This document shows, one piece after another, positions 257 to 39,548 of a DNA stretch of 44,456 bases (positions are counted from its first letter, which is position 1; each line of letters begins with the position of its first letter). Made by a program: the position numbers and the translations under genes. The DNA comes from Acidobacteriota bacterium (GTDB lineage: Bacteria; Acidobacteriota; Vicinamibacteria; Vicinamibacterales; SCN-69-37), in NCBI GenBank assembly GCA_005799825.1, contig SYFT01000009.1, forward strand, positions 1-44,456, written 5' to 3'. The notes under the pieces are model-generated. The model made no database searches and had not been told where the DNA came from. It saw nothing but the letters and a program-made list of their open reading frames with translations.

Positions 257-905
257 ATGTTCGAACAAGCCTTCAAAAACATCGACGACGTCCTCTGGAA
301 AGACGCCGGCTGCACTAGCGAACTCGATTACACCGAGCAGACCTCCTGACTGCTCTTCCTGAAATACCTCGACGCTCTCGAACACGACAAGGCCACCGAC
401 GCCGCCCTCGGCGGCAGGAAATACACCCACATCCTCGACAAACCCTATCGCTGGGGAACGTGGGCTACGCCCAAAGGCAAGGACGGCAAGGTCGATCGCA
501 ACACCGCCCAGATCGACAACGACCTCATCGCCTTCGTCAACGCCAAGCTCTTTCCGTATCGCAATGGTTTCAAGGCCAAGGCCAAGGCCAAGGCCAAGGC
601 CAAGGCCAAGGCCACCGGCCCGAACACCATCGAATACAAAATCGGCGCAATCTTCAGCGAGATAAGAAATCGCGTCCAGAGCGGCCACACCCTGCGTGAT
701 GTCATCGACCATGTGGACGAACTCCGCTTTCAGTCTCAGACGGAGAAGTATGAGCTTTCGCAACTCTACGAGACGAAGATCAAAAACATGGGCAACGCGG
801 GCAAGAACGGCGGCGAGTATCACACCCCGCGCCCACTCATTCGCGCGATCGTGGCCGTCACCACGCCCCGGCTCGGCGAGACCATCTGCGACCCCGCCGT
901 CGACT
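257..905 (+). pseudogene. hsdM: Type I restriction-modification methyltransferase HsdM, N-terminal remnant
   Basis: Read from ATG 257 in one frame, this encodes the start of a type I DNA methyltransferase M subunit: FEQAFKNIDDVLWKDAG, then EQTS-stop-LLFLKYLD, ELRFQSQTEKYELSQLYE and GGEYHTPRPLIRAIV, up to the start of the SAM-binding motif (ETICDPA). Two lesions inactivate it. A TGA at 347-349 replaces the Trp usual in the EQTSW motif. After ETICDPAV the reading runs into IS3-family transposase sequence, so the rest of the methyltransferase, including the NPPY motif, is gone. No hsdS or hsdR lies nearby. It also carries a hexanucleotide repeat coding for Ala-Lys. It is best read as a dead fragment of a transferred island next to the tRNA. 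Confidence 0.85.
571..612 (+). repeat. Seven tandem copies of CAAGGC inside the hsdM remnant
   Basis: Seven perfect copies of the hexamer caaggc run from 571 to 612 and encode an Ala-Lys run in the hsdM frame. The period is a multiple of three, so copy-number change would alter linker length and not the frame. The host gene is already broken, so it is probably only a slippage product. Confidence 0.9.
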
Positions 906-35607: not shown

Positions 35608-36821
35608 TTCCCTTAGCGGTCTTCTTGGTGGTGTGCGCAATTGCCTATGTTGCGGTGGTCGAAACCGCATTTGGCGTCCTGATGCGCCTGCCCGAACGCC
35701 TCGAGGCTGAACGCGAAAGCGAAGCCGACGGCCTCGCGGCCTACCTCGAAGACCCCCTGACCTTCTTCGTCCCCGCGCGACTGGTCCGCGGCATGCTGCT
35801 GGTGCTGATGGTCGTCCTGATGGTCCAGCCAATTGGCACAGGCTGGTATAGCGGCCTGGTTCTGTTTTTTTCGTGCGCTGGGCTGACGCTTGTGGCCGGC
35901 CATCTGGTGCCAACGCTTGTGGTCAGGCACGCGCCCGAGCGCCTGTTGGTGATGTTGCTGCCGCCCTTCACGGCGATGGCGAACCTGGTGACGCCGCTGA
36001 CGGCGCTCATCATCGGCTGGCTCGGCACCGTGGAGCGCCGCGCGCCGCGGACCAACGGGAACGGTCACCCTTCACAAGAGCCGCAGGCCGAGGGCGCCGC
36101 CACGGCCGAAGATGGCCGACTGCTGCGGTCAGTGGTGGACTTTGGTGACGCGCTGGTGCGAGAGGTCATGACGCCGCGACCCGATGTGGTGGCCATTCGC
36201 GCTGAGGCGACGATTGATGAACTCCGTGCGCTCGTGCGCGAACAGGAGTACTCACGACTACCAGTCTTCCGCGAGAATCTCGACAACATCATCGGCCTCG
36301 TGGTGGTCAAGGATCTGATTCAACTCGAAGAGCCCATGTTGGGTACGGCCGCTGTGACCGGGCTTATGCGGCCGGCCGCTTTTGTGCCTGAAACCAAACG
36401 TGTAGCCGATTTACTGCGGGAGTTCCAGCAGAAACGATTCCAGCTGGCTATGGTAGTGGATGAGTATGGCGGCATCGCCGGCCTGGTCACGGTCGAAGAC
36501 CTCGTCGAAGAACTCGTCGGCGAAATTCGCGACGAGTACGACCTGGAGGCCGAACCCATCGTGCAGGAGCCCAACGGCGCATTTGTCTTCAGCGCCAAAG
36601 TCGCAATCGGTGAGATGACCGAGTGGCTTGGGATTACGATTGACGAAGAGGGGTTCGAGACCGTGGGCGGCTACGTGCTCACCCGCGCCGGACGAGTGCC
36701 CGCGGCAGGGGAGTCCTTCACAGCTGATGGCGTCTCGGTGGAAGTACTCGAAGCCGAGCGTCGCCGGATTCACAAAATCCGTGTGCGCCGCCTGCCGCCC
36801 GACGAAGGCCAGGAACAGTGA
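35604..36821 (+). CDS. CorC/HlyC-type membrane protein with DUF21 and CBS domains
   Basis: 405 aa. An N-terminal DUF21/CNNM membrane domain has four likely helices (LAVFLVVCAIAYVAVVETAF, MLLVLMVVLMV, GLVLFFSCAGLTLVAGHL, MANLVTPLTALIIGWLG). A CBS pair (VREVMTPRPDVVAI and IAGLVTVEDLVEELVGEI) and a C-terminal CorC/HlyC domain (ETVGGYVLTRAGRVPAAGE) follow. The old name 'hemolysin' is misleading; relatives act in Mg2+/Co2+ efflux. It lies between ybeY and era. Confidence 0.9.
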   Translation: MIPLAVFLVVCAIAYVAVVETAFGVLMRLPERLEAERESEADGLAAYLEDPLTFFVPARLVRGMLLVLMVVLMVQPIGTGWYSGLVLFFSCAGLTLVAGHLVPTLVVRHAPERLLVMLLPPFTAMANLVTPLTALIIGWLGTVERRAPRTNGNGHPSQEPQAEGAATAEDGRLLRSVVDFGDALVREVMTPRPDVVAIRAEATIDELRALVREQEYSRLPVFRENLDNIIGLVVVKDLIQLEEPMLGTAAVTGLMRPAAFVPETKRVADLLREFQQKRFQLAMVVDEYGGIAGLVTVEDLVEELVGEIRDEYDLEAEPIVQEPNGAFVFSAKVAIGEMTEWLGITIDEEGFETVGGYVLTRAGRVPAAGESFTADGVSVEVLEAERRRIHKIRVRRLPPDEGQEQ

Positions 36822-37714
36822 GGGCCGGCTACGTCGCACTCGTCGGACGGCCGAACGCCGGCAAGTCCACACTGATGAATCGCCTCATCGGCCAGAAGCT
36901 GTCCATCGTCTCAGACAAGCCGCAGACCACCCGCCATCGCATCACCGGGGTTCTGAACACTCCGGGCGGCCAGCTCGTGTTCATCGACACGCCAGGGATT
37001 CACAAACCCGAATACACGATGAATCGGCGCATGGTCAAGGCCGCGCTCGACACGCTGCGCGAGGCCGACCTGGTTGTGCTGGTGGTAGACGCGGCCGAGG
37101 AGCCCGGCTGGGGCGATCGCTTTGTGATGGACCGTCTCGTCGACCTCCACAAACCCCTCATCATCGTCTTGAACAAAGTCGATCGGGTGAAGGACAAGAC
37201 CAGCCTGCTGCCACGGATCGAGAGCTACGCGAAGGGCACCACGAACCACGCAGTGATTCCCATTTCGGCGCTCACAGGTGACCAGGTCGGCGGTCTCCTC
37301 AAGGAGATGCTGGCGGTATTGCCGGAACGCGAGCCGCTGTTTGATGAGGAGTACTTCACCGATCAGTCAGAGCGCACACTCGCGGCGGAGCTCATTCGTG
37401 AAAAAGTCCTCGCCCGCACGCGCGATGAATTGCCGTACTCCACGGCGGTGGTGATCGATCAGTTCGCGGAAGCTGAAACACTGGGAGGCGTGACCAAGAT
37501 CTATGCATCTATTCTTGTAGATCACGACTCCCAGAAGCCGATCGTCATCGGTAAAGGCGGCGAGATGATTAAGCGCATCGGCACCGAGGCGCGCAAGGAC
37601 CTCCAGGAGATGCTCGAGGGGCCCGTTTACCTAGACTTGCACGTGAAGGTGCGCAAGGACTGGCGCGAAGACGAACGTCTCCTCGACGAGTTGGGCCTGC
37701 CCAAAAGAAGCTGA
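36818..37714 (+). CDS. era: GTPase Era
   Basis: 298 aa with a GTG start overlapping the CBS gene (GTGA). GTPase motifs: GRPNAGKST (G1), DTPGIH (G3), LNKVD (G4). A KH domain at the C-terminus contains VIGKGGEMIKRIGTEARKDLQ, which binds 16S rRNA near its 3' end. Era is needed for 30S assembly. It ends shortly before the inverted-repeat element at 37756. Confidence 0.96.
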   Translation: MRAGYVALVGRPNAGKSTLMNRLIGQKLSIVSDKPQTTRHRITGVLNTPGGQLVFIDTPGIHKPEYTMNRRMVKAALDTLREADLVVLVVDAAEEPGWGDRFVMDRLVDLHKPLIIVLNKVDRVKDKTSLLPRIESYAKGTTNHAVIPISALTGDQVGGLLKEMLAVLPEREPLFDEEYFTDQSERTLAAELIREKVLARTRDELPYSTAVVIDQFAEAETLGGVTKIYASILVDHDSQKPIVIGKGGEMIKRIGTEARKDLQEMLEGPVYLDLHVKVRKDWREDERLLDELGLPKRS

Positions 37715-37755: not shown

Positions 37756-38092
37756 CGTAGCTCGGCCTGATCCTCAAGGCCGAGGATCTAGGACCTGCCG
37801 AAGACCGCGGCCGCGTGGGAAGCGTGACTGGCCTGCCATTGGGCTCGTATCAAGTCGCCGCGTGTTCGCCAGTGACACATGCGCAACTGCAGGATGCCGA
37901 ATTCCTAAATCAGCTTGTTGGAGTATCGGCTGCGGTTGTGTTTACGAACGACATCCGGAAACAGTCAGTCGTGCTTCGCGTCCAGTGAAGCGGCGAACGA
38001 CTTTCAACGGGGCTGCCGAAGACCGCTGCCCTCATGGCCAGGGTCTTTGGCAGGTCCAAGGTCCTCGACCTTGAGGATCAGGCCGAGCTACG
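37756..38092. repeat. Long inverted repeat (51-bp arms) flanking a gene remnant
   Basis: The left arm 37756-37806 starts cgtagctcggcctgatcctc. The right arm 38042-38092 is its reverse complement with 47 of 51 bases matching. Each arm also folds on itself (for instance atcctcaaggccgaggat). A partial third copy of the inner edge (tgccgaagaccgc) occurs at 38014-38026. The 235 bp between the arms hold a decayed coding fragment and no transposase. It fills most of the 460-bp gap between era and mgtE. A MITE-like element or a pair of REP-type repeats around a deletion are both possible. I saw no clear target-site duplication. Confidence 0.82.
37815..37988 (+). pseudogene. C-terminal remnant of a carboxypeptidase-regulatory-like domain protein
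   Basis: In the frame at 37815 the sequence reads SVTGLPLGSYQVAACSP, then QLQDAEFLNQLVGVSAAVV and KQSVVLRVQ before TGA at 37986. This matches the last strands of the Ig-like carboxypeptidase regulatory domain common in acidobacterial surface proteins (typically GLPPGDYLVAA, a DPEFL segment, then LDLRLQ). There is no start or upstream domain, and both sides are inverted repeat. The identification is from motif resemblance only. Confidence 0.5.
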
Positions 38093-38162
38093 CACCTGCA
38101 CTCAATCGCAGATGCCGATGTAAATTTCCGATTCGGCTGCCCTTGCAAGACCCAGACCAGTC

Positions 38163-38168
38163 TAAAAT
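38163..38168 (+). promoter_or_regulatory. -10 element TAAAAT for a leaderless mgtE mRNA
   Basis: TAAAAT ends 6 nt before the mgtE ATG at 38175, the same geometry as at the gamma-carbonic anhydrase gene. A -35 match is weak. Confidence 0.45.
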
Positions 38169-38174
38169 GAAGGG

Positions 38175-39548
38175 ATGGCGGTGCCGCGCAGGAATAATCT
38201 CGTGCTGGAGTCGGTCCGGCGACTGCTCCGCATGGGTGCCACGGCCAACCTTCTGAACCTGCTCCAGAAGCAGCATCCAGCCGATCTGGCCCAGGTTTTT
38301 GCTGAACTGAAGGAGCGCGACTGCCACGCGGTCTTTAACGTCCTGGTCGAACGCAACGGGAAACTGGCCGTGGAGGCGCTCAGCGAATACGGACCCGAGA
38401 AGGGCTCCCTGCTCCTCGCCGATCGCCCGGCAGAAGAAATCGCCCGCCTGGTCCAGGAGATTCCCTCCGACGACGCGGCGGCGCTGATCGATCACCTGCC
38501 TGAGGAACTATCCGCGGTCGTCCTGGAACTGATCCGTCCGGAACCCGGCGGTGGCCCGTCCGAGCTGCTCGACTACGAAGAGCAGACTGCTGGCCGGTTG
38601 ATGAACCCGAACGTGTTCGCACTGTCGGAAGACCTGACCGCTGGCGAAGCGATCACCGCGATCCAGAATGGTCGCGACGTCGAGATGGTGTTCTACCTTT
38701 ACGTCGTCGACGAACGCCGGCATCTGGTGGGCGTCACATCGTTGCGGCGGCTCATACTGGTGTCTCCCGACACGCCGCTCAAGCGCATCATGACCTCCGA
38801 CGTCTACAGCGCGCGCGTGGACACGGACCAGGAAGAAGTGGCGCGTCGTGTCGCGTCGTACAACCTTCTGGCGATTCCGGTTGTGGATCCGGAAAACAAA
38901 CTTGTCGGCGTCATTACGGTAGACGACGTAATAGACATTCTGAAGGACGAAGCCACTGAAGACGTCTTCCGGCTCGCCGGCGTTTCCACATTTGACGGCG
39001 TGCTCTCGGGACCGTTTGAGTCGCTGAAGCGCCGCATGCCCTGGCTGCTCGTGAACCTGTTGACGGCGTTTGGGGCCGCGTGGGTGGTCAGTCGATTCGA
39101 AGCGACGATTACCCAGGTGGTGGCGCTGAGCTTCCTGATGCCCGTCGTCGCTGGCATGGGCGGCAACGCGGCCACACAGACGCTCGCTGTCATCGTGCGT
39201 GGTATTGCCCTCGGTGAATTGACCTGGAGCAACGCGCGCCAGGCGCTGATGAAAGAAGCGCTCGTCGGCCTGGGCAATGGCATTGCACTCGGACTGGTGG
39301 CCACGTTCGGCGCATGGGCTCTGACCGGCGACTGGGCGCTCGGGGCCATCCTCGGCCTGGCCATGATCATGAATATGTTCATCGCGGCCACGGCGGGCAC
39401 GCTGATTCCGCTCGGCCTGCGCGCGGCCAAAGTCGATCCCGCCCTCGCGTCCTCGGTCTTCATCACCACGCTGACCGACGTCTTCGGATTCCTCGCGTTC
39501 CTGGGCCTCGCCACACTCTTTCTCGGGTTCCTGCACACCGCGCCATGA
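38175..39548 (+). CDS. mgtE: Magnesium transporter MgtE
   Basis: 457 aa. N domain of helical repeats (HPADLAQVFAEL), two CBS domains (TAGRLMNPNVFALSEDLTA; MTSDVYSARVDTDQEEVAR then GVITVDDVIDIL) and five membrane helices from about residue 290 (PWLLVNLLTAFGAAWVVSRF, FLMPVVAGMGGNAATQTLAVIVRG, TLTDVFGFLAFLGLATLF). The Mg2+-gated channel signature AGMGGNAATQT is intact. The CBS domains sense Mg2+ and close the pore. It lies between the inverted-repeat element and recO. Confidence 0.95.
   Translation: MAVPRRNNLVLESVRRLLRMGATANLLNLLQKQHPADLAQVFAELKERDCHAVFNVLVERNGKLAVEALSEYGPEKGSLLLADRPAEEIARLVQEIPSDDAAALIDHLPEELSAVVLELIRPEPGGGPSELLDYEEQTAGRLMNPNVFALSEDLTAGEAITAIQNGRDVEMVFYLYVVDERRHLVGVTSLRRLILVSPDTPLKRIMTSDVYSARVDTDQEEVARRVASYNLLAIPVVDPENKLVGVITVDDVIDILKDEATEDVFRLAGVSTFDGVLSGPFESLKRRMPWLLVNLLTAFGAAWVVSRFEATITQVVALSFLMPVVAGMGGNAATQTLAVIVRGIALGELTWSNARQALMKEALVGLGNGIALGLVATFGAWALTGDWALGAILGLAMIMNMFIAATAGTLIPLGLRAAKVDPALASSVFITTLTDVFGFLAFLGLATLFLGFLHTAP

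What the first reader, a model, noticed from the sequence alone, without database searches (positions are those of the whole stretch)
37756..38092. Inverted-repeat element with a domain remnant as cargo between era and mgtE
The 51-bp arms match at 47 positions, each arm forms its own hairpin, and the interior holds the end of a carboxypeptidase-regulatory-like domain with no transposase. This could be a non-autonomous mobile unit that carries gene pieces, or repeats left after deletion of a larger insert.
Basis: seen in the sequence. Interest (0 to 1): 0.6.

Follow-up and report, generated by a model that had tools for sequence, protein, structure and literature searches.

The report
Two RAYT-family REPs flanking gene debris
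The inverted repeats between era and mgtE are two copies of a common short bacterial repeat (a REP, about 120 copies in this Acidobacteria genome, most likely spread by one transposase-like gene), and the DNA between them is the leftover tail of a dead gene, so this is ordinary genome debris and not a new cargo-carrying mobile element.

Summary
In detail: 37756-37824 and 38024-38092 are inverted arms (47/51 in the outer part, 86% over 69 nt), each starting with its own hairpin, around the 3' end of a gene with a carboxypeptidase-regulatory-like C-terminus. The hairpin (GTAG + 7-8 bp stem) is a REP: 98 copies at <=3 mismatches in the 2.9-Mb genome, 0 for the reversed pattern, about 122 with looser matching; stem changes are compensatory. 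The genome has one RAYT-type Y1 transposase, in a purN-purM site conserved in the genus. The sister genome Baikal-deep-G11 (G006) shares the family. Normal pairs have GTAG inside, 8-70 bp apart (33), or GTAG outside, 5-6 bp apart (5). The window pair (GTAG outside, 279 bp apart) fits neither; the only other wide pair brackets a tRNA-Asn gene. Interior and inner arms occur once, so nothing shows that the unit moves with cargo. In the sister genome a similar REP-flanked gene stump arose by a ~3.6-kb deletion whose genes are intact in the window's genome. Best reading: two REPs, one an inverted local duplicate of the other, bracketing a decayed gene tail. New REP family, known kind; low interest.

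The parts
36818..37714 (+). era, upstream flanking gene
   Evidence: ORF; orthologues in 56 of 60 relatives
37756..37824 (+). left arm of the inverted repeat (69 nt)
37757..37784 (+). left REP: GTAG + stem-loop (CTCGGCCT .. AGGCCGAG)
   Evidence: one of 98 genome copies at <=3 mismatches, reversed-pattern control 0; hairpin
37825..37988 (+). remnant: last ~54 codons and own stop of a gene with a carboxypeptidase-regulatory-like C-terminus; no 5' part. The open frame runs back through the left REP to a TAG at 37758
   Evidence: junction at ~37824 placed by the inner end of arm homology
38010..38056 (+). second hairpin after the stop codon, ~15-bp stem (CTGCCGAAGACC / GGTCTTTGGCAG); its first half is repeated in direct orientation at 37795-37812 in the left arm
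38024..38092 (-). right arm of the inverted repeat
38064..38091 (-). right REP, inverted relative to the left one (head-to-head: both GTAG motifs outermost)
38143..38168 (+). block TTGCAAGACCCAGACCAGTCTAAAAT conserved upstream of mgtE in G005; perhaps part of the mgtE promoter
   Evidence: alignment with G005; promoter role is inferred, the simple scan finds none
38175..39548 (+). mgtE, downstream flanking gene
   Evidence: ORF; orthologues next to era in many relatives

Best explanation
The arms are two GTAG-type REP sequences of a family dispersed over this Acidobacteria genome, most likely by its single RAYT (REP-associated tyrosine transposase). The interior is a dead 3' stump of a former gene that lay or landed between era and mgtE. 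A paralogous gene elsewhere in this genome has a REP pair directly after its stop codon; the right REP with its preceding hairpin looks like such a gene-end REP. The left arm looks like an inverted local duplicate of the right arm (REP plus ~40 nt), joined to the gene tail at ~37824, with the rest of the gene lost. The pair does not form a transposing unit with cargo. Shown: the REP family, the RAYT gene, the pair geometry, the single-copy interior, the short era-mgtE gap in a relative, and a comparable deletion-made REP-flanked stump in the sister genome. Inferred: that this RAYT spreads this REP, that one arm is a duplicate of the other and which way, and that the gene's 5' part was deleted in place.
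For: REP family: 98 copies at <=3 mismatches, reversed-pattern control 0; 122 with a looser pattern. Stem kept by compensatory change: pair 9/22 is C-G in 65 and G-C in 44 copies; pair 5/26 is T-A in 102 and G-C in 8. One Y1_Tnp gene in the genome, with HWH at 60-62 and YVERNALQARLV at 122 and a sub-threshold match to NCBIfam REP-associated tyrosine transposase (63.2 bits, cut-off 80). Sister genome G006 shares both REP family (50+41 copies) and RAYT (95% identical). REP turnover: the REP beside the RAYT is a 55-bp presence/absence difference between G000 and G006. Geometry: 33 GTAG-inside pairs at 8-70 bp and 5 GTAG-outside pairs at 5-6 bp; the window pair (279 bp) and C47 (268 bp, around a tRNA-Asn) are the only wide ones. 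Local duplication: the arms share 18 of 22 nt after the REP against a mean of 6.0 over 7381 REP pairs; the other pairs that close belong to the long-tail subfamily or are 5-6 bp dimers, and the GATC loop is shared by only 4 REPs; the 15-mer inside the arms has no other exact copy in four genomes of the genus. Gene-end habit: a paralogous gene on C42 has a REP pair starting 9 nt after its stop codon. Precedent: in G006, REPs bracket the first ~100 codons of an NAD-binding reductase, left by loss of ~3.6 kb that G000 still has.
Against: No relative with the intact gene at the era-mgtE site was found; the closest genome, G006, is broken there (era ends at a contig edge; mgtE not in the assembly). 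No close parent of the tail was found in the genome, in 162 genomes of the order or in 396 of the phylum. The direction of duplication (right to left) is an inference. G005's short gap is also compatible with insertion of a ready-made block in the G000 lineage.
Confidence: 0.75

Rival explanations
1. A REP-ended composite: the RAYT cut at the two outward-facing REPs and moved the gene tail with them into the era-mgtE gap as one unit (a cargo-carrying REPIN).
For: The homology of the two arms begins exactly at the base before GTAG on both sides and nothing outside matches. A relative with 88% identical Era has only ~88 bp between era and mgtE. RAYT and REPs co-occur in the genome.
Against: Single copy in the genome. 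Head-to-head REP pairs here otherwise have 5-6 bp spacers. No donor gene in the genome. The exact outer boundary is expected anyway, since it is the boundary of the REP itself. G003 has different debris at the same site, so the gap varies without REPs.
Confidence: 0.08
2. Two independent REP insertions that happened to land on either side of an old gene stump; the extra arm similarity comes from gene conversion between them.
For: Independent REPs do flank unrelated DNA at similar spacing, e.g. a tRNA-Asn gene on C47. REPs are dense between genes.
Against: The arms share 18 of 22 nt beyond the REP, in sequence found nowhere else, and a rare loop. Conversion would need a pre-existing tract of similarity there.
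Confidence: 0.12
3. A functional RNA or regulatory element (mRNA 3' stabiliser for era or a leader for mgtE) kept by selection.
For: REPs have been credited with RNA roles in other bacteria (PMC3733652). Strong second hairpin at 38010-38056.
Against: No Rfam family at gathering score and only chance-level matches. Absent in G005, where the conserved pre-mgtE block is still present. No terminator-like site.
Confidence: 0.05

Closest known systems
GTAG REP families (repetitive extragenic palindromes; Di Nocera et al. 2013, PMC3733652)
   Same: GTAG at one end, 7-8 bp palindrome with a loop, about 120 copies, dimers in both inverted orientations, location near gene ends
   Different: That survey lists GTAG repeats from Proteobacteria, Cyanobacteria, Chloroflexi and the PVC group; Acidobacteria are named there only for a group of transposases. 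In this genome GTAG-inside dimers prevail, whereas GTAG-outside dimers are called predominant in the survey's table
REPINs (Bertels and Rainey 2011, PMC3116915)
   Same: Inverted REP doublets able to fold into one hairpin, with a RAYT in the genome; the family as a whole fits
   Different: The window pair has a 279-bp spacer made of a gene stump and is unique; it is not a replicating doublet
RAYT / TnpA-REP (PMC2817692, PMC8266576; NCBIfam NF047646, Pfam PF01797)
   Same: HUH motif HWH, Tyr motif, Pfam Y1_Tnp over cut-off, single chromosomal gene; kept in a purN-purM site in four genomes of the genus
   Different: Scores below the NCBIfam cut-off; the REP beside it is missing in the sister genome, and G005 and G003 have the RAYT without this REP family

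Membership tests
GTAG REP | GTAG followed by an imperfect palindrome | tested here: met
   Both arms; stem preserved by compensatory changes in 122 copies
GTAG REP | High copy number in the genome | tested here: met
   98 copies at <=3 mismatches, reversed-pattern control 0
GTAG REP | RAYT gene in the same genome | tested here: met
   One Y1_Tnp gene, C15:1453-2058; that it acts on this REP is inferred from co-occurrence with G006
REPIN (replicating REP doublet) | Two inverted REPs at the spacing typical of the family | tested here: not met
   Window spacing 279 bp; family spacings 8-70 bp (GTAG inside) or 5-6 bp (GTAG outside)
REPIN (replicating REP doublet) | More than one copy of the same doublet with its spacer | tested here: not met
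   Interior and inner arms found once in the genome
Non-autonomous transposon (MITE) with cargo | Several copies with the same ends and interior | tested here: not met
   Single copy
Non-autonomous transposon (MITE) with cargo | Exact empty site in a relative | tested here: inconclusive
   G005 gap is ~88 bp but too diverged around the ends to place an exact empty site
RAYT | HUH motif and catalytic Tyr in the Y1 transposase family | tested here: met
   HWH 60-62, Y122; Pfam PF01797 41 bits, cut-off 23
RAYT | Score over the curated NCBIfam NF047646 cut-off | tested here: not met
   63.2 bits, cut-off 80; so called RAYT-like here, not assigned to that model
RAYT | Cuts and joins single-stranded REP DNA | not testable with these tools
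   Needs biochemistry as in PMC8266576

The most novel reading that the evidence does not exclude
Outward-facing REPs can act as the ends of a larger unit, so that a RAYT picks up and moves pieces of neighbouring genes; this locus would be a captured gene tail.
Probability: 0.06. Interest if true: 0.6.

Novelty: new member of a known kind. Interest (0 to 1): 0.2.

Why it matters
It documents a GTAG REP family with a RAYT-like gene in Acidobacteria, shared by two species whose compared loci are ~86-90% identical in DNA, with syntenic REPs, one clear presence/absence site beside the RAYT, and two related genomes that keep the RAYT but lack this REP family. That is a usable natural series for asking how REPs arise under a vertically inherited RAYT. 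The era-mgtE structure itself matters mainly as a warning: a REP pair around a gene stump can imitate a transposon with terminal inverted repeats.

Tried and rejected
Mobile unit with cargo: rejected for lack of a second copy and of a donor gene. Inner arm as part of a wider repeat family: rejected, the 15-mer has no other exact copy. Structured RNA or riboswitch before mgtE: no Rfam match. Intrinsic terminator: none by the simple scan. tRNA in the window: none. G006 as the direct empty-site comparison: not possible, the junction is missing from its assembly. A collection-wide scan for the REP with one free loop base found it in Baikal-deep-G11, which is G006 (100% identical loci), and in one more Acidobacteria MAG, F1-120-MAGs236, which was not pursued further.

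Full report
What is in the sequence. The arms 37756-37824 and 38024-38092 are real: 69 nt, 86% complementary, 199 nt apart, 47 of 51 identical in the outer part and 12 of 18 in the inner part. The region folds far better than shuffles (z -8.6). Each arm starts with GTAG and a stem-loop. The right side carries a second hairpin (38010-38056) between the stop codon of the interior ORF and the right REP; the first half of it, CTGCCGAAGACC, is also present in direct orientation in the left arm.

The outer 28 nt are a REP. In the window's own genome (2.93 Mb in 111 contigs; the window is contig 57) the pattern has 98 matches at up to 3 mismatches; the reversed pattern has none. A looser pattern on fetched stretches gives 122. 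Stem pairs change together: C-G to G-C at pair 9/22 (65 and 44 copies), T-A to G-C at pair 5/26 (102 and 8). The genome holds one Y1 transposase gene: 202 aa, HWH motif, YVERNALQARLV, Pfam PF01797 over cut-off, NCBIfam REP-associated tyrosine transposase at 63 bits, below its cut-off of 80. It lies between genes that read as purN and purM, and the same place holds its orthologues in G006, G005 and G003 (95, 78, 73% identical). Of the six other genomes of the genus searched only G006, the Lake Baikal MAG Baikal-deep-G11, has the REP family (91 copies). Several REPs are at the same place in both genomes, but the REP beside the RAYT is a clean 55-bp difference. The action of this RAYT on this REP is inferred, not shown.

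Pair geometry. In the terms of PMC3733652, 33 neighbouring pairs are tail-to-tail (GTAG inside) with 8-70 bp between, and 5 are head-to-head (GTAG outside) with 5-6 bp. Only two head-to-head pairs are wide: C47 (268 bp), which brackets a tRNA-Asn gene, and the window (279 bp). So a wide inverted REP pair is not by itself a unit. The window pair differs from C47 in one way: its homology goes on for ~40 nt past the REP. After the REP 18 of 22 nt agree, against a mean of 6.0 for all 7381 REP pairs. The other pairs at that level belong to a subfamily with a long shared tail or are tight dimers. The loop GATC is shared by only 4 of 122 REPs, and the inner 15-mer has no other exact copy in four genomes of the genus. 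I infer that one arm is an inverted duplicate of the other, made locally.

The interior. The ORF's C-terminal ~55 residues match, weakly, only the last residues of longer proteins (32-41%). In C42 a paralogous gene ends 9 nt before a REP pair, so a REP just after such a stop codon is not unusual here. No second copy of the interior exists in the genome, and no close parent in 162 genomes of the order or 396 of the phylum.

The site in relatives. G005 (Era 88% identical) has about 88 bp between era and mgtE; G007 is similar; G003 has ~630 bp of other sequence; G002 and G004 have other genes directly after era. The site is variable. G006 cannot be read here.

A precedent for decay. In G006 contig 26, REPs at 69236 (+) and 69728 (-) bracket the first ~100 codons of an NAD-binding reductase gene. 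In G000 the same reductase gene is full length and ~3.6 kb, including a 792-aa ORF, lies between the two stretches that are joined in G006. The right REP is at the same place in both. The stump came from a deletion in G006 (or, less likely, its intact form from an insertion in G000), not from transport between REPs. This is the closest model for the window.

Conclusion. Two REPs of a RAYT-associated family, one probably duplicated in inverted orientation, around a dead gene tail. PMC3733652 does not list a GTAG repeat family in Acidobacteria, and a 2025 survey (PMC12306157) reports REP-like sequences in Acidobacteriota in general; this family is a further member of a known kind.

Noticed in passing
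G000 C109:17824-17926 (L066) and C95:935-1035 (L063), and others: A longer REP-pair subfamily ends in a shared 23-nt tail ACACGCAAACGAAAAACGCTCTA; 18 of 122 REPs carry it, on both sides in several pairs, so it looks like a ~160-bp element with terminal inverted repeats built around a tail-to-tail REP pair.
   Followed up: partly
L061:1453-2058: RAYT-like gene between purN and purM, kept at that place in four genomes of the genus, two of which (G005, G003) lack this REP family.
   Followed up: partly
L217:2230-2760 (G006 C26:69230-69760): REP-flanked stump of an NAD-binding reductase gene; ~3.6 kb present in G000 (C20:92156-95779) is missing in G006.
   Followed up: yes
L019:1501-1824 (G000 C47:5379-5702): Two REPs in inverted orientation bracket a tRNA-Asn (GTT) gene.
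   Followed up: yes
window 38163-38177: TAAAAT lies 6 nt before the ATG of mgtE and is TAGAAT in G005; mgtE may have a leaderless transcript.
   Followed up: no
window 571-614: Perfect tandem repeat CAAGGC, 7.3 copies.
   Followed up: no
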